Below, piece after piece: positions 30,496-37,969 of a stretch of 64,000 nt of DNA. Made by a program: the position numbers and the translations under genes. A model generated the notes under the pieces. It was not told where the DNA came from and searched no databases. It saw only the letters and a list, made by a program, of their open reading frames with translations. Numbering within the stretch: position 1 is the first letter of the stretch; each line of letters opens with the position of its first letter. The stretch comes from Pyrinomonadaceae bacterium (lineage in GTDB: Bacteria; Acidobacteriota; Blastocatellia; Pyrinomonadales; Pyrinomonadaceae), in NCBI GenBank assembly GCA_014380365.1, contig JACMJZ010000029.1, forward strand, positions 124,001 to 188,000, given 5' to 3'.

Positions 30496-32877
30496 CTAGC
30501 CTGATCGCACCAGGCGGAATCCGTGGTTCGCATGCCTCATCGTAGGCGCATACCAATCCCGATAGGTCGCCGAGATGGGCAACTCCCGATCTTCAGGATC
30601 GCTGGCGTAGGAGCCGCCTCGCGCGACAACCCAGTCCCGGTTTCCTTCCGGGATCTCCGCCGCGTTCATATAAACCGAGGCCTTGGAAGACGTCCACTCC
30701 CAGACGTTACCGACCAGGTCTACTACTCCCCATTGATTCTTACCTTCCGGGTAAGTGCCAACGGCGCGCGGCGTAGCCTCTCTCACAACTGCACGATTGT
30801 CTTCCCATCGATCTCCCCAGGGGTACAACTTAACGGCGCCGCCGTTGCGGGCGGCAAACTCCCATTCTTCTTCAGTGGGCAAACGATAAGTCACGCCATC
30901 TCTTTTTGAGCGCCAGCCGGCGAACGCTTCGGCGTCTCTCGGAGAAACGTTTACTACCGGCCATTTCTCCTGGCCAGGCAAGGGCTTTCCTTTGACCCAA
31001 TGGCTGGGAGCTTCATAATTCATGGCCGTGACAAAGTCAGCGTACTCTGCGTTCGTCACTTCGGTCCGGTCCATAAAAAACTTACCTACGGTGACCGGAT
31101 GTTGCGGCCGCTCCTGAGGGGGCCCATCGTTGCGGCCCATCTGAAACGTTCCGCCCGGAATCTCCACCAGGTCAGCTTTAACCGTTTCGGCTTTTCCGCC
31201 GTTCGTTACCTGATTGATGTTTGGGTCGCCGCCTCCAACGGGCGGCGAAGGTTTCGACCGCAATAAGAAGTATGCGCCAATCACGCCGCCAGTCAGCAGT
31301 ACCACCAAAACCGCTGCTCCAACCATCATCATCGGATTCACAGTTTTTGGCGCGGAGTCTGCGGCTCTTGCCGGTGGAATGGTATCCGGGAGCGCCGCTG
31401 CACCGGCAAAACTGTTATTGCCGACGTCGCCTACCCTAAAGTTTTGGTGTACCTGCGTCGCTTCGGGATCGACAAGGGTCGTGTCAGGCACAGAGCCGTG
31501 GGGGACAATGCTGGTTGCCAGGCGGGCCAGTCGCTCTTCGAGTTCTTTTGCCTGCCGCTCGACGCGTTCCATCTGTTCGCGTTGCTGGCGTTCACGTTCG
31601 TCGCGTTCGTGTTTTTCTTTGGTTAGCCGTTCCTCAAGTTCCTTCTGCTTGCGCTGCTTCTCGTCCTCCGCATGGCGGCGGGCCGCAGCCTCGCGCGCCA
31701 ATTCCTCCTGAGCGACGCGATTTCTTTCCTGCTGTTCGCGGTCATAGGCCTCACGCGACGCAGCGATCCGGCGTTGTTCTTCCGGGCTCAGAGTAGGAGC
31801 ACTGACTTTTGCCACCGGATCGAAAACTGTTTCGGAAGTGACCTGATGCTCAGCCTTCGCGGTGTCTGACGCGGGAGAGAAGATTGTTTCGTTAGGATCG
31901 CCAGTCAGGATCTCTCGCGGTATTCGCGCCGAAGGGCCGGCGGCACTAACTGCTTCTCTGAGCTCCGCAACGAATGCCTCGACTGAAGGCGTACGCGCCG
32001 ATACTTCCTTCTCCAGGGCGTGACGCACAACCGCCTCGATCTGCGGCGCCACGTCAACTCCCATTGAATTGAAACTTGGCACCGGCAGAGTCAGATGCTT
32101 CTTCATGATCGATGGAATCGAGGAGCCTTTGAAGGGCACGTCTCCACCCAGCATCTGGTAGAGAATTATTCCGAGACTGTAGATGTCAGCGCGCGCATCG
32201 GGCTCATCGTCAGACCATTGTTCAGGCGCCATATAAAAAGGCGAACCCATCAACCCGCTGGTCTTGGCCTGAATAAACGATCCCAGCAGCTCGCCAGACT
32301 TGATCTTGGCTAAACCGAAGTCGAGTATCTTCAACCCCTCGGCTACCGGCTGGCCGGCCTGCGTCATGATATTCAGCGGCTTCAAATCACGGTGCACAAT
32401 ATTCTGCCGGTGCGCCGCAGCCACGCCCGCTCCGATGGCGCAAGCAAACTCCAACGCGCGCTCCGCCGTCATGACTTTCTCTTCTGCCAGAATTTCCTGA
32501 AGTGATTTGCCGCTGACAAACTCCATTACTAAAAAAGGCATCGTGCCTCGCACGACGCCAAAGTCTGTGACGGAAATGATGTTCTGATGGCGGATGGCCG
32601 CCGCGGCGAGCGCCTCCTGACGAAAACGCGTCACCAGCATCGGATCGTTGCCAACCAGATCGGGCAAGATTACTTTGATGGCGTGAGAAGTTTTGAGAAA
32701 GATGTGACGCGCCTGAAAGACGACGCCCATGCCGCCCTGGCCCAGCCGGCGCTCCAGTTGATAGCGAGCATCGAGTATGGGCTCGCCCTGGAGCGACTGC
32801 GTAGTCGCATCGCCGTCCTGCGGACAGTGGTTGATTTCGTCAGAAAAACAGCGCCTGCAGGTTGGACATTCTTTCAT
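30496..32877 (-). CDS. Zinc-ribbon Ser/Thr protein kinase fused to an FGE/SUMF1-like domain
   Basis: A 793-residue membrane-spanning Hanks-type kinase. Order: N-terminal zinc ribbon (CPTCRRCFSDEINHC), kinase domain about 38-300 with GQGGMGVVFQA, the Lys in HAIKVILPD, HRDLKPLNIMT (about 160), DFGLAKI (about 188) and APEQW (about 219), so it looks catalytically competent. A Glu/Arg/Lys coiled coil follows (about 375-455), then a transmembrane helix (AAVLVVLLTGGVIGAYFLL) and an extracytoplasmic formylglycine-generating-enzyme-like domain (IPGGTFQMGRNDGPPQERPQ to GFRLVRSG). The catalytic Cys pair of true FGE is absent (ARGGSYASDPEDRELP), so that domain is probably a sensor or binding module. Confidence 0.9.
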   Translation of the reverse strand: MKECPTCRRCFSDEINHCPQDGDATTQSLQGEPILDARYQLERRLGQGGMGVVFQARHIFLKTSHAIKVILPDLVGNDPMLVTRFRQEALAAAAIRHQNIISVTDFGVVRGTMPFLVMEFVSGKSLQEILAEEKVMTAERALEFACAIGAGVAAAHRQNIVHRDLKPLNIMTQAGQPVAEGLKILDFGLAKIKSGELLGSFIQAKTSGLMGSPFYMAPEQWSDDEPDARADIYSLGIILYQMLGGDVPFKGSSIPSIMKKHLTLPVPSFNSMGVDVAPQIEAVVRHALEKEVSARTPSVEAFVAELREAVSAAGPSARIPREILTGDPNETIFSPASDTAKAEHQVTSETVFDPVAKVSAPTLSPEEQRRIAASREAYDREQQERNRVAQEELAREAAARRHAEDEKQRKQKELEERLTKEKHERDERERQQREQMERVERQAKELEERLARLATSIVPHGSVPDTTLVDPEATQVHQNFRVGDVGNNSFAGAAALPDTIPPARAADSAPKTVNPMMMVGAAVLVVLLTGGVIGAYFLLRSKPSPPVGGGDPNINQVTNGGKAETVKADLVEIPGGTFQMGRNDGPPQERPQHPVTVGKFFMDRTEVTNAEYADFVTAMNYEAPSHWVKGKPLPGQEKWPVVNVSPRDAEAFAGWRSKRDGVTYRLPTEEEWEFAARNGGAVKLYPWGDRWEDNRAVVREATPRAVGTYPEGKNQWGVVDLVGNVWEWTSSKASVYMNAAEIPEGNRDWVVARGGSYASDPEDRELPISATYRDWYAPTMRHANHGFRLVRSG

Positions 32878-33054
32878 TTAATGAAAAGGTTGGAGTCAAC
32901 GCCGACTTTGGCCAAGTCTGCAGTTTGCGAGCCGCATCGAACCCTAAATCTAGCATAAGCCAAGTTTTGCGTCTAACCATTGATGCTGTAGGCGAGATCC
33001 AATGTGCTTTGCGTTCTCAGTCTGCTTGTCATCCCCAACCAGGAAAAAAATCTC

Positions 33055-33082
33055 TTGACATCAGCTTAGTGCGAACTATAAT
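33055..33082 (+). promoter_or_regulatory. Perfect consensus sigma-70-type promoter of the RNA gene
   Basis: TTGACA (33055-33060) and TATAAT (33077-33082) match consensus at 12 of 12 positions with a 16-base spacer. Transcription would begin near 33089. Confidence 0.85.
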
Positions 33083-33088
33083 CCGTTC

Positions 33089-33323
33089 GCTTGGAAACCG
33101 CTCCCATTCACGAGCACCCTCTCAGGCTTTTCCGGGGCGCTCACGTTCCCATTCCAGGCAATTCCGGAATTTTACCCTTTACCTAACGCGAGCCTCAATG
33201 CGTTCACAGCTATCAAAAATACGTAAGGCGCCAAGAGTCTGCTGTGCCTGTGAACACGTGCCGCTGAACTTCCGTGCATAGTTCGGCCCCGCTATCACTC
33301 GAGAGGTGACGGCGGGGCCTTTT
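33089..33323 (+). ncRNA. Candidate 6S-like regulatory RNA
   Basis: A transcript of about 230 nt is bounded by a consensus promoter and a strong terminator. It has no credible gene: a frame runs through from 32862 but has no family character or ribosome site. The ends pair in strict nested order: 33093-33096 with 33270-33273 (GGAA/TTCC), 33107-33111 with 33250-33254 (TTCAC/GTGAA), 33114-33117 with 33244-33247 (GCAC/GTGC), and 33136-33140 with 33228-33232 (GGCGC/GCGCC). A large asymmetric interior loop lies at about 33118-33135 and 33233-33243, and the apical part can form small hairpins. A long rod with a central bubble is the 6S RNA plan, but I cannot confirm conserved 6S positions. It could instead be an mRNA leader with attenuation. 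Confidence 0.5.
33285..33323 (+). terminator. Intrinsic terminator of the RNA gene
   Basis: GGCCCCGC (33285-33292) pairs with GCGGGGCC (33312-33319), with an inner TCAC/GTGA stem, followed by TTTT at 33320-33323. Confidence 0.9.
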
Positions 33324-33422
33324 AATCAACACGACCTTTACTGGTACTTCGCGCAAAGGTGTATCGACCAGGAATATCTTACCGCGTAGCGCCGGAGGGT
33401 CTCAACCAAAAGGAGCCCTGAT

Positions 33423-34277
33423 ATGAAACTTTTTCTAATCTTGCTGGCTTGTCTAGTCGCCGCTGCTATTGTCCCGACAGGTTTAGTCCAATCGCCACGC
33501 GCCGCCGCGATTACGAACTTCCAAGGGCCAGGTCTCGACCGTTTCACGCAGAAGACTCTTCAGGGTCCTGAGGTTGTAGCTCGAATTAAGAAACTCCGTA
33601 CCAAAAACAAAGGTGTTAAGCGTGCCATGCGCGACCTCGAAAACAGGGGACTACGTCCAGCCTTAGAGCAAAGTGTGAGCCTTCTCGAGTTCAGAAGAAC
33701 TGCTGTAAGTCGGGATGGCACGAATCGTTTCCTCAAAGCGTCGTTTCAGTCTGAGACTTTCTCAGAGGACGGTTATGAAATGACCTTCATGTCTTATGAC
33801 GACGGCGATCCCAACACCTGGGAGGGCGTAATCTACGAGCACGACCCCGAAGGGCACGAGTATAGCTACACCGTATCCTTCGACATCTCAGGTGAACCAG
33901 AAACTTGGGAAAGGATTGAAGAGACATACTACCCTTGGGACGGAAGTGAGCCCGTTTCAAACACCGATCCCAACTACTACAACCCAGGCCAATATCCCAT
34001 CGACCCCGAGCAACCACCCGTGTCGAAAAACAAGTCGAGCGATGGACGCAGTTCATATATGGCGAAAGCAAGTTTCACCACGAATGCCCAAGGGCATTGT
34101 ATTCGAAACTGCATCCCACCTCATTGGCAAGACCGCGGTCGACGCTGGTTGCAATGCGCAGGTGGAAGTTGCCTCGGTGCTTCCTACGGTTGTCTCAGGA
34201 GCGGACCTGGCTGGGTAGTGTGCTTCAAAGGGTGGTGTGGTGGTATGGCGGCTGGGTGCGTCATCATCTCTTGGTAA
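33423..34277 (+). CDS. Secreted precursor-like protein with C-terminal eight-cysteine glycine-rich domain (bacteriocin-like)
   Basis: A 284-residue exported protein, start supported by AAGGAG eight bases upstream. Signal peptide MKLFLILLACLVAAAIVPTG, cleavage probably after RAAA. Residues about 30-220 are cysteine-free, charged and Tyr/Glu/Asp-rich (TYYPWDGSEPVSNTDPNYY). The last 60 residues hold all eight mature cysteines: CIRNCIPPHW, LQCAGGSCLGASYGC, GWVVCFKGWCGGMAAGCVI, ending ISW. A long leader-like region with a compact hydrophobic Gly/Cys C-terminus recalls precursors of secreted cysteine-rich antimicrobial peptides (halocin C8 or fulvocin C type). This is inference from architecture; I recognise no family. 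The next gene is 12 bases downstream. Confidence 0.65.
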   Translation: MKLFLILLACLVAAAIVPTGLVQSPRAAAITNFQGPGLDRFTQKTLQGPEVVARIKKLRTKNKGVKRAMRDLENRGLRPALEQSVSLLEFRRTAVSRDGTNRFLKASFQSETFSEDGYEMTFMSYDDGDPNTWEGVIYEHDPEGHEYSYTVSFDISGEPETWERIEETYYPWDGSEPVSNTDPNYYNPGQYPIDPEQPPVSKNKSSDGRSSYMAKASFTTNAQGHCIRNCIPPHWQDRGRRWLQCAGGSCLGASYGCLRSGPGWVVCFKGWCGGMAAGCVIISW

Positions 34278-34289
34278 AAGGAGGTTGAT

Positions 34290-34553
34290 ATGGGTGCGAA
34301 GGAAATCCTATCTTACGTTGGCGGCATCGTGACCTTCGTGCTGGTCGGCTTGGCGCTGCGGCGACGAGTGCCTGAGGAGCTCGCCCTTGGAATTGGCTGG
34401 CTGGCAGCGTTTCTAATCGGCTTTCCGTTCACCCGATCCCTTTCCGCTAAGGCAGGCAAGCGACTAATGTTCGGAGAGTGGGCGGTCTTCAGTACGCTCG
34501 GAGCGTTGGCAGGCATAGCGGTAGTATTTCTTATGAAACGTTTCGGGCTCTGA
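34290..34553 (+). CDS. Small three-helix membrane protein, partner of the Cys-rich protein (possible immunity)
   Basis: An 87-residue integral membrane protein with three predicted helices: YVGGIVTFVLVGLAL, LALGIGWLAAFLIGFPF, and AVFSTLGALAGIAVVFLM. An excellent AAAAGGAGG precedes the ATG. It follows the Cys-rich secreted protein gene by 12 bases in the same direction, so they are one operon. Small membrane proteins in this position commonly give immunity to a bacteriocin; that role is inferred only. Confidence 0.65.
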   Translation: MGAKEILSYVGGIVTFVLVGLALRRRVPEELALGIGWLAAFLIGFPFTRSLSAKAGKRLMFGEWAVFSTLGALAGIAVVFLMKRFGL

Positions 34554-34563
34554 CCGCTCAAAT

Positions 34564-34606
34564 ACTGGCGAAGGGCCGCGCCTGAGAACGCGGCCTGCTC
34601 GCCAGT
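34564..34606. terminator. Bidirectional hairpin between convergent genes
   Basis: ACTGGCGA..GGCCGCG (34564-34580) pairs with CGCGGCC..TCGCCAGT (34589-34606), a near-perfect long stem just before the leuS stop at 34608. It probably ends both the bacteriocin-like operon and leuS transcripts. Confidence 0.75.
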
Positions 34607-34607
34607 G

Positions 34608-37160
34608 TTATTTCATCACGACGTTCACTAGGCGCTGGGGCACAACGATCACCTTGATCACCTCGTGGCCAGCAACCAACTCCTTAACTTTCTCGTCGTT
34701 AAGAGCTGCGGCGCGCAGTTCGTCTTCGGTCACTTCGGGCGAAGTCAAAAGCCGCGAACGCAACTTCCCATTTACCTGAATCGGAATCTCCAGCTCTTCA
34801 CGCCGTGCCAACTCCGCATCAGCTTGCGGCCAACGTCCGGAACCGAGCAGCCCGCCCTGATGGCCCAACGATTCCCACATCTCCTCAGCTACGTGCGGCG
34901 AAAAAGGCGCCAGCATGGTCACTAACGACTCCAACGCTTCACGCACTGCAAAAATGTCTGCCGAAGAAGCCCCGGCCGGATCCGCGTTGAAGTCACTTAA
35001 CTCATTGAATAACTCCATCAGCGCCGCGACGATGGTGTTCAGATGCAACCCTTCAAAGTCGCTGGTGACCTTCGCTATCGTCTGATGTGTCTTGCGTCGC
35101 AAAGCTCGCGCAGCTGGACTAAACTCTTCCGCTCCGTCCGTATCAGCAGCGCCGGCAGACAGCCGCTCATGCCAGCGACCGACCATCGTGTAAACGCGCC
35201 GGATGAATCTCACCGCGCCTTCAATGCCCGACTCCAACCAGCGCAACTCGTTCTCGACTGGCGCGGCAAACAGAATGAACAGCCGCGCAGCATCCGCACC
35301 AAACGCCGCAATCATCTCGTCGGGATCGACGCCGTTGCCGAGACTCTTCGACATCGCCTTCCAGTCGTCAGTTCCTTCGACGCGATTCGTAACCATTCCC
35401 TGCGTCAGCAACCTCTTCACGGGCTCGTCAAATGAAACAAGACCGAGGTCGCGCATAAACTTCGTCCAGAAACGCGTGTAAATCAGGTGCATCACGGCGT
35501 GGGAATCGCCGCCGATGTACTGGTCGACCGGCGTCCACTGCGCGGCGATCTCCGGATCGAATGGCATGTCCTCATTGCGCGGATCGCAGTAGCGGAAAAA
35601 GTACCAGGATGAATCAACGAACGTGTCCATCGTGTCCGTTTCGCGTTTCGCCGCGCCGCCGCACTTCGGGCAGGTCGTGTTAACAAAGTCCGCCACGCCG
35701 GCGAGCGGCGCTCCCGTCCCGGTGAATGCCGCGGACTCCGGCAACACCACCGGCAGTTGATCGTAAGGAACAGGAACCATGCCGCACTTTTCGCAGTAGA
35801 TCATTGGCACCGGCGCACCCCAGAAGCGCTGCCGCGACACGCCCCAATCGCGAATGCGATAAGTGACAGCGGCTTCACCAAAGCCATGTTTATGAGCGTG
35901 CTTCGCCATTTCCTTCATTGCGTCGCCGGAAAGTTTCCCGCTCCAGTCGCCGGAGTTAACCAGGATGCCGTAGTCGGTAAACGCATGCGGCATCGCGATG
36001 GACTGGTCCGCGCTCAACGAGTCGTGCACGATCGACTCCTGGCTGTGCGAGATGCGTTCAATTACGCGATGGATGGGCAACGAATACTTTTGCGCAAACT
36101 CAAAATCGCGTTCGTCGTGCGCCGGCACGCTCATCACAGCGCCTGTGCCGTATTCCATCATGACGTAGTTGGCAACCCAAACCGGAACCGTCTCGCCGCT
36201 GAAAGGATTGATAGCCAAGACCCCAGTGTTGATTCCCTCCTTCGGCGCCTCTTCTTCGCGCGCGCGACTGGCCGTTTCCGCCCTCACCTTCCGGGCAAAC
36301 GCCTCGACGTCGTTCTTCAACGAGGATCCTTCGAGCAACTCATCAAGCAGCGGATGCTCAGCTGAGATCGCGATCGCAGTCGCCCCATAGATCGTGTCGA
36401 TGCGGGTCGTGAACACACGGATTTTCTTTTTGCTGTCCTTAACCGCGAAGTCGACATAGGCGCCTTCGCTGCGCCCGACCCAATCGCGCTGCCGCTTCAA
36501 CACTTTCTCCGGCCAGGCGCTTTCAATTTGCTTGATGTCCGCAACGAGTTGCTCAGCGTATTCCGTGATGCGCAGAAACCACTGCTCCAGATCTCGTTTT
36601 TCCACGGCCGCGCCACAACGCCAACAGATGCCGCCCGCCGATTGTTCATTGGAGAGCACAGTGCCTTCCTTTGGACACCAGTTAACCGGCGACAGTTTTT
36701 TGTAGGCGAGGTTACGCTCATGCATTTTCAGGAAGAACCACTGGTCCCATTTGTAGAACTCGGGACGATGCGCCGCAATTTCGCGCGACCAGTCGTAGCT
36801 AATCCCCAGCCGCTGCATCTGTCCGCGCATGTGGGCAATGTTTTCTTCAGTCCAATCACGAGGGTTAACGCCCCGTTTGATGGCCGCCTGTTCAGCGGGC
36901 TGCCCAAAACTGTCCCAACCGATCGGATGCATCACGTTGAATCCCTGCAAGCGCTTGTACCAGGCGAGGGCATCGCCGATTGAGTAGTTGCGCACGTGGC
37001 CCATGTGCAGAAAGCCTGACGGGTAAGGAAGCATCTCGAGGCAGTAAAACTTCGGACGCGGATCGTCCGTCCGCGCCTCAAATGCCTGCGACTCTTGCCA
37101 ATGCCGTTGCCACTTCTTTTCGATATGTTCTGGAAAATATTTTTCGTCCATGTGCTTCAC
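34608..37160 (-). CDS. leuS: Leucyl-tRNA synthetase
   Basis: Charges tRNA-Leu; cytoplasmic. The 850-residue length is normal for the bacterial enzyme. The HIGH motif reads HMGH in PYPSGFLHMGHVRNYSIGD (about 46-64), and KMSKS reads KAMSKS near residue 604. The editing domain is present (GINTGVLAINPFSGETVPVW and the GTGAVMSVPAHDERD motif). Zinc cysteines are visible in CPKEGTVL..CWRCG and YCEKCG..CPKCGG. No leucine T-box or attenuator is recognisable in the 273 bases upstream. Confidence 0.97.
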   Translation of the reverse strand: MKHMDEKYFPEHIEKKWQRHWQESQAFEARTDDPRPKFYCLEMLPYPSGFLHMGHVRNYSIGDALAWYKRLQGFNVMHPIGWDSFGQPAEQAAIKRGVNPRDWTEENIAHMRGQMQRLGISYDWSREIAAHRPEFYKWDQWFFLKMHERNLAYKKLSPVNWCPKEGTVLSNEQSAGGICWRCGAAVEKRDLEQWFLRITEYAEQLVADIKQIESAWPEKVLKRQRDWVGRSEGAYVDFAVKDSKKKIRVFTTRIDTIYGATAIAISAEHPLLDELLEGSSLKNDVEAFARKVRAETASRAREEEAPKEGINTGVLAINPFSGETVPVWVANYVMMEYGTGAVMSVPAHDERDFEFAQKYSLPIHRVIERISHSQESIVHDSLSADQSIAMPHAFTDYGILVNSGDWSGKLSGDAMKEMAKHAHKHGFGEAAVTYRIRDWGVSRQRFWGAPVPMIYCEKCGMVPVPYDQLPVVLPESAAFTGTGAPLAGVADFVNTTCPKCGGAAKRETDTMDTFVDSSWYFFRYCDPRNEDMPFDPEIAAQWTPVDQYIGGDSHAVMHLIYTRFWTKFMRDLGLVSFDEPVKRLLTQGMVTNRVEGTDDWKAMSKSLGNGVDPDEMIAAFGADAARLFILFAAPVENELRWLESGIEGAVRFIRRVYTMVGRWHERLSAGAADTDGAEEFSPAARALRRKTHQTIAKVTSDFEGLHLNTIVAALMELFNELSDFNADPAGASSADIFAVREALESLVTMLAPFSPHVAEEMWESLGHQGGLLGSGRWPQADAELARREELEIPIQVNGKLRSRLLTSPEVTEDELRAAALNDEKVKELVAGHEVIKVIVVPQRLVNVVMK

Positions 37161-37434: not shown

Positions 37435-37731
37435 TCATGGAGTGCTCCGCTGATGCTCTTTCATGTACGCGCGCAAGAGAGAGTTTATTCTTGTCTGGTA
37501 TCCCGGACCCTGCTTCTTGTACCAATCAACAACGTCGCTATCCACCCGCAGCGTTAGCTGCTTCTTGCGTGGTATCGGCTTGAAGTTTCGTCGCAAGACC
37601 GCACGCGAAAACATTTCCGGTGTCGCTTCCGGTATGTCGGAGAAATCTATGTCCTTGTCGGTCATCGCATCTATGCGTTTCCAATCAGTCTGATCAGTCT
37701 CTGCTTTCTTTGTAGTAGACCTCTTCTTCAT
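37435..37731 (-). CDS. brnA: BrnA family antitoxin
   Basis: A 98-residue antitoxin and likely repressor of a type II module. The N-terminal half is charged and probably wraps the toxin; the C-terminal part (KKQLTLRVDSDVVDWYKKQG, then YQTRINSLLRAYMKEH) is a ribbon-helix-helix DNA-binding domain as in BrnA. It overlaps the brnT 3' end by 38 bases (37694-37731), giving the usual toxin-first order of BrnT/BrnA. Confidence 0.9.
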   Translation of the reverse strand: MKKRSTTKKAETDQTDWKRIDAMTDKDIDFSDIPEATPEMFSRAVLRRNFKPIPRKKQLTLRVDSDVVDWYKKQGPGYQTRINSLLRAYMKEHQRSTP

Positions 37732-37969
37732 CCTTCGATGCCTTTCTGACCGATATTATTCTGGTAACTTCGTCAGTCTCCGTATGGGAAATTGCCACAA
37801 CCCTTCCGTCGAGCAGGCCAACCGTGAGGAAACGAATCTCACCATACTCGAACCTATCATCCAGAAGAGTAAGTGCGTCACTAGCGAAAATCTCCTCGAC
37901 CCTCAGAAAGTCGATCCCGTGGCGCCGGAGATTGCGATGCCGTTTGGCTTCGTCCCACTCAAATCGCAT
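37694..37969 (-). CDS. brnT: BrnT family ribonuclease toxin
   Basis: A 91-residue toxin of the BrnT (RelE-fold) family that cleaves RNA and arrests growth. Family motifs are FEWDEAKRHRNLRRHGIDF at the N-terminus, EIRFLTVGLLDGRVVAISHT in the middle, and TRIISVRKASKDEEEVYYK at the end, with the conserved Arg and Lys/His positions. The start ATG is at 37969, only a few bases after a probable promoter, so the message may be almost leaderless. Confidence 0.92.
   Translation of the reverse strand: MRFEWDEAKRHRNLRRHGIDFLRVEEIFASDALTLLDDRFEYGEIRFLTVGLLDGRVVAISHTETDEVTRIISVRKASKDEEEVYYKESRD

What the first reader, a model, noticed from the sequence alone, without database searches (positions are those of the whole stretch)
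33423..34553. Two-gene unit: secreted precursor with an eight-cysteine Gly-rich C-terminus plus a small membrane protein
Seen: signal peptide, about 190 cysteine-free residues, then a 60-residue C-terminus with eight cysteines and a hydrophobic Gly-rich end; 12 bases later, an 87-residue three-helix membrane protein with a strong ribosome site. Known: halocin C8 and fulvocin C types are secreted cysteine-rich antimicrobials, the former made from a long precursor. Inference: this could be an undescribed acidobacterial bacteriocin with membrane immunity. No dedicated ABC transporter or modification enzyme is adjacent.
Basis: partly seen in the sequence, partly recalled or inferred. Interest (0 to 1): 0.72.

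Follow-up and report, generated by a model that had tools for sequence, protein, structure and literature searches.

The report
Secreted toxin-like peptide with membrane partner
This soil acidobacterium carries a small mobile two-gene cassette that looks like a secreted, disulfide-rich, probably antibacterial peptide made inside a larger precursor plus a three-helix membrane protein that probably protects the producer; relatives carry the same precursor with different peptide endings, which would make it an undescribed bacteriocin-like family.

Summary
In detail: 33423-34277 encodes a 284-residue secreted precursor whose last 59 residues hold eight cysteines; 12 bases later 34290-34553 encodes an 87-residue three-helix membrane protein. 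No Pfam, NCBIfam or PDB family matches the precursor. It belongs to a small family in class Blastocatellia (Acidobacteriota) with a conserved pro-domain and a variable cysteine-rich end. Cores and pro-domains are shuffled: the window's core recurs (43% identity, 0 of 2000 cysteine-fixed shuffles as good) on an unalignable pro-domain in a distant genome, beside a TlpA-like redoxin, ABC-2 transporter genes and two three-helix genes. A second core type from this genome recurs in a sister species at the same leuS-kinase site, again with a three-helix gene. That site is empty in most sister species. Five of ten loci with a readable core have the three-helix neighbour; two three-helix genes are orphans. 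Best explanation (about 0.55): a bacteriocin-like toxin precursor with exchangeable, SdpC/YitM-like cores and a membrane immunity protein. Antimicrobial activity, processing and immunity are inferred, not shown. Membership in the halocin C8, SDP or fulvocin families is not supported.

The parts
33055..33082 (+). Sigma-70 promoter-like site, TTGACA-16-TATAAT, 12 of 12 matches
   Evidence: Consensus scan; the only full match. A terminator-like hairpin lies between it and the precursor, so it is not certain that it drives the unit.
33284..33319 (+). GC-rich hairpin followed by TTTT: terminator or attenuator in the 5' region
   Evidence: Folded (65-nt stretch, -29.8 kcal/mol); an 89% identical hairpin occurs between other genes in G006, so it is probably a generic terminator type.
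33423..33506 (+). Signal peptide of the precursor (residues 1 to about 28)
   Evidence: Read from the sequence: MK, hydrophobic stretch, AAA near the probable cleavage site; no twin-arginine motif. Helix 2-16 in the model.
33507..34097 (+). Pro-region (residues 29-225), acidic, conserved in Blastocatellia relatives
   Evidence: 31-38% identity to relatives, shuffle z 15-28; residues 42-90 are the best modelled part, two helices then strands.
34098..34274 (+). Cysteine-rich core, residues 226-284, 8 Cys; the recurring six-Cys module is residues 245-284
   Evidence: 41-43% identical to the core of an otherwise unalignable precursor in G066.
33423..34277 (+). Whole precursor gene, 284 aa
34290..34553 (+). 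87-aa three-helix membrane protein, proposed immunity protein, with [FY]P at the end of TM2
34564..34608 (.). Strong hairpin between the unit and the convergent leuS gene, probably a shared terminator
   Evidence: Folded (87-nt stretch, -37.0 kcal/mol).

Best explanation
The unit is a bacteriocin-like toxin and immunity cassette. The precursor is exported by the Sec pathway (inferred from the signal peptide). Its conserved, acidic pro-domain keeps the C-terminal peptide soluble and inactive and perhaps presents it for maturation (inferred). Outside the cytoplasm the cysteines form disulfides and a protease, not encoded here, releases a 40-60 residue, basic (+5), Gly-rich, partly hydrophobic peptide that acts on the membranes of related bacteria (inferred). 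The probably co-transcribed three-helix membrane protein protects the producer (inferred). Cores, some of them with their neighbouring three-helix genes, are exchanged between loci and species, as in SdpC/YitM-type and polymorphic toxins (the exchange is supported by sequence; the function is not shown).
For: Family with a conserved pro-domain and divergent cysteine-rich hydrophobic C-terminus. Core I shared by P0001 and a G066 precursor (score 96, 19/44 identical, 0 of 2000 cysteine-fixed shuffles as high) although their pro-domains do not align (z 1.5). Core II shared by the own-genome paralogue and G012 (25/51 identical, z 11.1), each directly followed by the most similar pair of three-helix genes (z 15.2). 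Three-helix genes lie directly 3' of the core in 5 of 10 loci with readable cores, and both families are rare: 6 of 162 and about 8 of 162 class genomes. The leuS-kinase gap is empty in most sister species, holds this unit in the own genome, another core plus three-helix gene in G012, and an unrelated cassette in G004. G+C is 51-53% over the precursor against 55-60% in most of the flanks. Relatives stand beside a ResA/MauD-like redoxin and ABC-2 genes whose ATPase is closest to the PSM exporter PmtA and also resembles lantibiotic-protection ABC ATPases.
Against: No activity or processing evidence. No protease, exporter or disulfide enzyme at the window locus. Five loci with cores lack the three-helix neighbour (G004, G056, G086 twice, G095). 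Two three-helix genes, in G022 and G029, sit near a pyrophosphatase-like gene with no precursor, so the family is not exclusive to this system. For core I the three-helix proteins do not track the cores: P0002 is closer to the orphan L053 and to L052 than to the L054 copies. Several relatives look broken (frameshifts, truncation, an IS), and they are mostly metagenome assemblies. The core could not be modelled (pLDDT below 50).
Confidence: 0.55

Rival explanations
1. The precursor is a secreted surface or envelope protein whose Cys-rich Gly-rich end is a membrane-inserted anchor; the three-helix protein helps insert or hold it. Nothing is released.
For: Hydrophobic cores (GRAVY up to 2.1 in L050); about 200-residue partly folded ectodomain; half the loci have no immunity-like neighbour.
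Against: An anchor would be expected to vary less than the ectodomain; here the end is exchanged between unalignable ectodomains and varies in cysteine number from 4 to 8. No C-terminal basic cluster of a sorting signal (sequence).
Confidence: 0.17
2. Toxin reading is right for the precursor but the three-helix protein is not an immunity protein: it is a maturation or export helper, and the pro-domain gives immunity, as in halocin C8.
For: Loci G004, G056, G086 and G095 have cores without the three-helix gene; HalI, the N-terminal part of the halocin C8 precursor, is the immunity peptide (PMC11509114).
Against: Core II is found next to the matching three-helix gene even where most of the pro-domain is missing (G012); orphan three-helix genes exist without a precursor, as expected for immunity genes.
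Confidence: 0.13
3. The core is a secreted signalling peptide (pheromone) and the three-helix protein is its receptor or exporter.
For: Secreted precursor with variable C-terminal peptide and paired membrane protein; Crp-type regulator genes lie upstream of three relatives.
Against: No histidine kinase or sensor partner in the unit; the three-helix protein has almost no extramembrane part; patchy presence and apparent gene decay fit toxins better than signalling.
Confidence: 0.1
4. The two genes are unrelated in function and merely adjacent.
For: Orphan three-helix genes at another locus in two genera.
Against: Two rare families adjacent in five loci, in genomes of two families of the class, is not chance; 12-base spacing here suggests co-transcription.
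Confidence: 0.05

Closest known systems
SdpC/SDP and YitM/YIT toxins of Bacillus subtilis (PMC6818787)
   Same: Signal peptide, conserved N-terminal three quarters, unrelated hydrophobic C-terminal toxin parts in paralogues, dedicated anti-toxin protein, patchy distribution.
   Different: No SdpA/SdpB next to the unit, no SDP-family model match, no sequence similarity detected, 4-8 cysteines in the core; the membrane partner is a separate three-helix family.
Halocin C8 (PMC11509114, PMC12893001)
   Same: Precursor of nearly identical length (283 against 284 aa) that releases a C-terminal peptide; halocin C8 is cysteine-rich (from memory).
   Different: Halocin C8 is exported by Tat and its N-terminal part is the immunity protein; here the signal is Sec-type and a separate membrane gene follows.
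Polymorphic toxin systems (PMC3482391)
   Same: Exchangeable C-terminal cassettes, probable immunity gene directly 3', cassettes that differ between strains at one site.
   Different: Much smaller: a Sec-secreted peptide precursor with a disulfide-rich hydrophobic core rather than an enzymatic toxin domain on a large delivery protein.
Fulvocin C of Myxococcus fulvus (from memory)
   Same: Eight cysteines in a short secreted peptide.
   Different: Fulvocin C is not known to be Gly-rich and hydrophobic like this; no sequence comparison was run.

Membership tests
SDP/YIT toxin family | Sequence match to SdpC or SdpI family models | tested here: not met
   No SDP-family match for precursor or small protein in Pfam or NCBIfam at E up to 10; it was not checked that an SdpC model is present in the libraries.
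SDP/YIT toxin family | Adjacent sdpA and sdpB maturation genes | tested here: not met
   Neighbours are a protein kinase gene and leuS.
SDP/YIT toxin family | Conserved pro-part with different hydrophobic C-terminal toxin in paralogues | tested here: met
   A shared way of working, not kinship.
Halocin C8 family | Sequence similarity of the cysteine-rich peptide | not testable with these tools
   No library match to P0001; the halocin sequence itself was not available.
Halocin C8 family | Twin-arginine signal peptide | tested here: not met
   N-terminus MKLFLILLACLVAAAIV has no RR motif.
Halocin C8 family | Immunity provided by the N-terminal part of the same precursor | not testable with these tools
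   Needs an experiment.
Polymorphic toxin systems | C-terminal cassettes exchanged between N-terminal parts | tested here: met
   Core I on two unalignable pro-domains; core II at two loci.
Polymorphic toxin systems | Cognate immunity gene directly 3' of each toxin end | tested here: inconclusive
   5 of 10 core loci have a three-helix gene 3'; pairing tracks core type for core II but not for core I.
Polymorphic toxin systems | Known delivery route and toxin domain family | tested here: not met
   Plain signal peptide; no toxin domain found in Pfam, NCBIfam or PDB.
Fulvocin C | Sequence similarity to the mature peptide | not tested
   Sequence not available in the tools used.
Bacteriocins in general | Ribosomally made secreted peptide that inhibits related bacteria | not testable with these tools
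   Activity not testable; secretion inferred from the signal peptide.

The most novel reading that the evidence does not exclude
An undescribed family of bacteriocins in Blastocatellia (Acidobacteriota) that works as a miniature polymorphic toxin system: one Sec-secreted pro-domain carries exchangeable disulfide-rich membrane-active cores, each with a matching three-helix immunity gene, moving as cassettes through preferred chromosomal sites.
Probability: 0.42. Interest if true: 0.68.

Novelty: new variant of a known kind. Interest (0 to 1): 0.55.

Why it matters
Little is known of peptide antagonism in Acidobacteriota, which are abundant in soil; the paper searches run here turned up no description of bacteriocins of this kind in them. 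If right, this is a genetically compact toxin family whose modular cores, pro-domain and partner gene can be tested directly, and the pattern (pro-domain plus swapped Cys-rich end plus [FY]P three-helix gene) gives a way to find more members.

Tried and rejected
Known-family membership: Pfam and NCBIfam scans of the precursor and four relatives gave only chance-level hits; P0002 matches YwiC (PF14256) at E 1.3e-4, below its cut-off, not followed. PDB profile search: one hit at E 0.3, rejected. Foldseek against PDB and viral models: nothing below E 0.25, and the model is poor (mean pLDDT 44.8), so no conclusion. Viral contigs, plasmids with P0001 and with the G095 precursor: none. Family outside the class: three hits at E 0.001-0.007 in the phylum search were not inspected. 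Core I searched in 396 phylum genomes and core I and II in the class: strong matches only at the seeding loci; seven weak hits were opened and none is a secreted cysteine-rich precursor. RNA: Rfam found nothing in 32800-34700. In one search locus L050 was scanned from a slightly wrong end coordinate (3370 instead of 3232), so ORFs ending between 3232 and 3270 could have been missed there.

Full report
What is there. The window encodes, on the + strand at 33423-34277, a 284-residue protein with a Sec-type signal peptide, about 197 cysteine-free residues and a 59-residue end with eight cysteines; 12 bases later, at 34290-34553, an 87-residue hydrophobic protein. AlphaFold gives the small protein three helices (mean pLDDT 70.7, single sequence). 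The unit stands between a protein-kinase gene (minus strand, its start at 32877) and leuS (minus strand, 34608-37160). A perfect sigma-70 consensus lies at 33055-33082, but a terminator-like hairpin at 33284-33319 separates it from the gene, so the transcription start is not settled.

Family. Neither protein passes a Pfam or NCBIfam cut-off. In whole genomes the single precursor sequence finds relatives at E 1.3e-18 to 3.9e-6 in five other genomes and a paralogue in the same genome. With a profile of seven sequences, 6 of 162 genomes of the class have members; in 396 genomes of the phylum nothing convincing appears outside the class; members that are rows of the profile match it by construction. 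Named relatives are Pyrinomonadaceae bacterium BP_18, an uncultured Pyrinomonas and Blastocatellia bacterium AA13, which places the window in class Blastocatellia of the Acidobacteriota.

Modularity. The alignment shows a conserved N-terminal part and a divergent C-terminal part. P0001 and its relatives L044, L045, L046 share the pro-domain (31-38% identity, z 25-28), but P0001's core is not related to the L044 and L045 cores beyond cysteine content (240 and 804 of 2000 cysteine-fixed shuffles reach the score); L046 was not among the pairs tested that way and did not pass z 3 in the plain test. Conversely P0001's core matches the end of a precursor in G066, a different family of the class, at 19/44 identities, with 0 of 2000 cysteine-fixed shuffles as good, while the pro-domains do not align (z 1.5). 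The shared pattern is C-x4-C-x5/6-C-x9-C-x4-C-G-G-x3-G-C. A second core type is shared by the own-genome paralogue (L047) and G012 (25/51, z 11.1). Searches with these core profiles found strong matches only at the loci that seeded them, so each core type is known from two loci.

Membrane partner. P0002 belongs to a family of 81-89 residue three-helix proteins with a [FY]P motif ending helix 2. Such a gene directly follows the core in the window, in the paralogue L047 (one frameshifted copy, then an intact one), in L048 (G036), in L054 (G066, two copies, the second running into a transposase gene) and in G012. It does not follow the cores of G004, G056, G086 (two loci) and G095. Of three-helix genes with readable upstream DNA, five have a core; G022 and G029 are orphans near a pyrophosphatase-like gene, and G074 is preceded by other genes with its upstream contig end close by. 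The core II pair has the most similar three-helix pair (z 15.2); the core I pair does not (P0002 against the L054 copies z 4.4 and 7.2, against the orphan L053 10.8). The immunity reading is therefore supported but not settled.

Neighbourhood in relatives. In G066 the order on one strand is a 586-aa protein, a ResA/MauD-like redoxin, the precursor, a three-helix gene, an ABC-2 permease, an ABC ATPase, and a second three-helix gene. The ATPase's best NCBIfam model is PmtA, exporter of phenol-soluble modulins (E 5.6e-55, below its cut-off), with the lantibiotic-protection ATPase model also matching. G095 has a precursor with another eight-Cys end followed by a similar permease and ATPase. Crp-type regulator genes lie upstream in G004, G066 and G085. 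Exporter and redox genes next to cysteine-rich secreted peptides are what a bacteriocin locus would be expected to have.

Mobility. In sister species of the genus the kinase and leuS genes are close neighbours with about 70-370 bases between them and no unit; DNA matches run on both sides up to the gap. The own genome has this unit in the gap; G012 has the end of a precursor with core II and its three-helix gene beside leuS, with the 5' part of the precursor missing and the contig ending just beyond; G004 has a 740-base gap with other coding stretches, an aspartic-protease-like one by reading. A 44-base stretch beside the kinase in the window (32944-32987) lies beside leuS in G004. G+C falls to 51-53% over the precursor. 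The site thus looks like a preferred place for small cassettes.

Mechanism. Supported by sequence: two genes, family, core exchange, site occupancy. Inferred: Sec export, disulfide formation, proteolytic release of a 40-60 residue peptide, membrane action, and protection by the three-helix protein. Precedents that work this way: SdpC and YitM share the N-terminal three quarters but have unrelated hydrophobic ends, and YitQ is a separate anti-toxin protein (PMC6818787); halocin C8 is the 76-residue mature peptide of a 283-residue precursor (PMC11509114) and is a C-terminal fragment released by an unidentified protease (PMC12893001); polymorphic toxins exchange C-terminal cassettes (PMC3482391). 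The unit is not filed as a member of any of these, because defining features that could be tested were not met.

Limits. Most relatives are metagenome-assembled, and frameshifts in L047 and L048 and truncations in L049, L090 and G012 may be real decay or assembly error. The structure model of the precursor is too poor to use for the core. No sequence of halocin C8 or fulvocin C could be compared. No close relative of the unit was found, so selection on it could not be measured.

Noticed in passing
window 37435-37969, - strand: BrnT toxin (E 8e-24) and BrnA antitoxin (E 8e-19) type II toxin-antitoxin pair just 5' of leuS.
   Followed up: partly
window 33055-33320, + strand: A 12/12 sigma-70 consensus followed about 200 bases later by a strong terminator-like hairpin, with no Rfam match and no conservation in 59 relatives apart from the hairpin: possibly an unrelated short transcript or an attenuated leader.
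   Followed up: partly
L044:9030-11486 and L046:9063-10520: Core-bearing precursors without a three-helix gene are followed by a beta-lactamase-family serine hydrolase with DUF3471, directly in L046 and after another gene (VWA-like by reading, no Pfam hit) in L044.
   Followed up: partly
L099 758-1497 (G004, leuS site): The same leuS-kinase gap in G004 holds other coding stretches, a small antitoxin-like protein and a retropepsin-like aspartic protease by reading.
   Followed up: no
L055:6475-6735 and L053:6174-6431: Orphan three-helix genes upstream of and divergent from an inorganic-pyrophosphatase-like gene in two genera, with no precursor.
   Followed up: partly
L106 (G012), positions 100-640 in the orientation with leuS on the minus strand: The 5' part of the core II precursor is missing and a different small gene runs into it, like an orphan toxin-end cassette.
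   Followed up: partly
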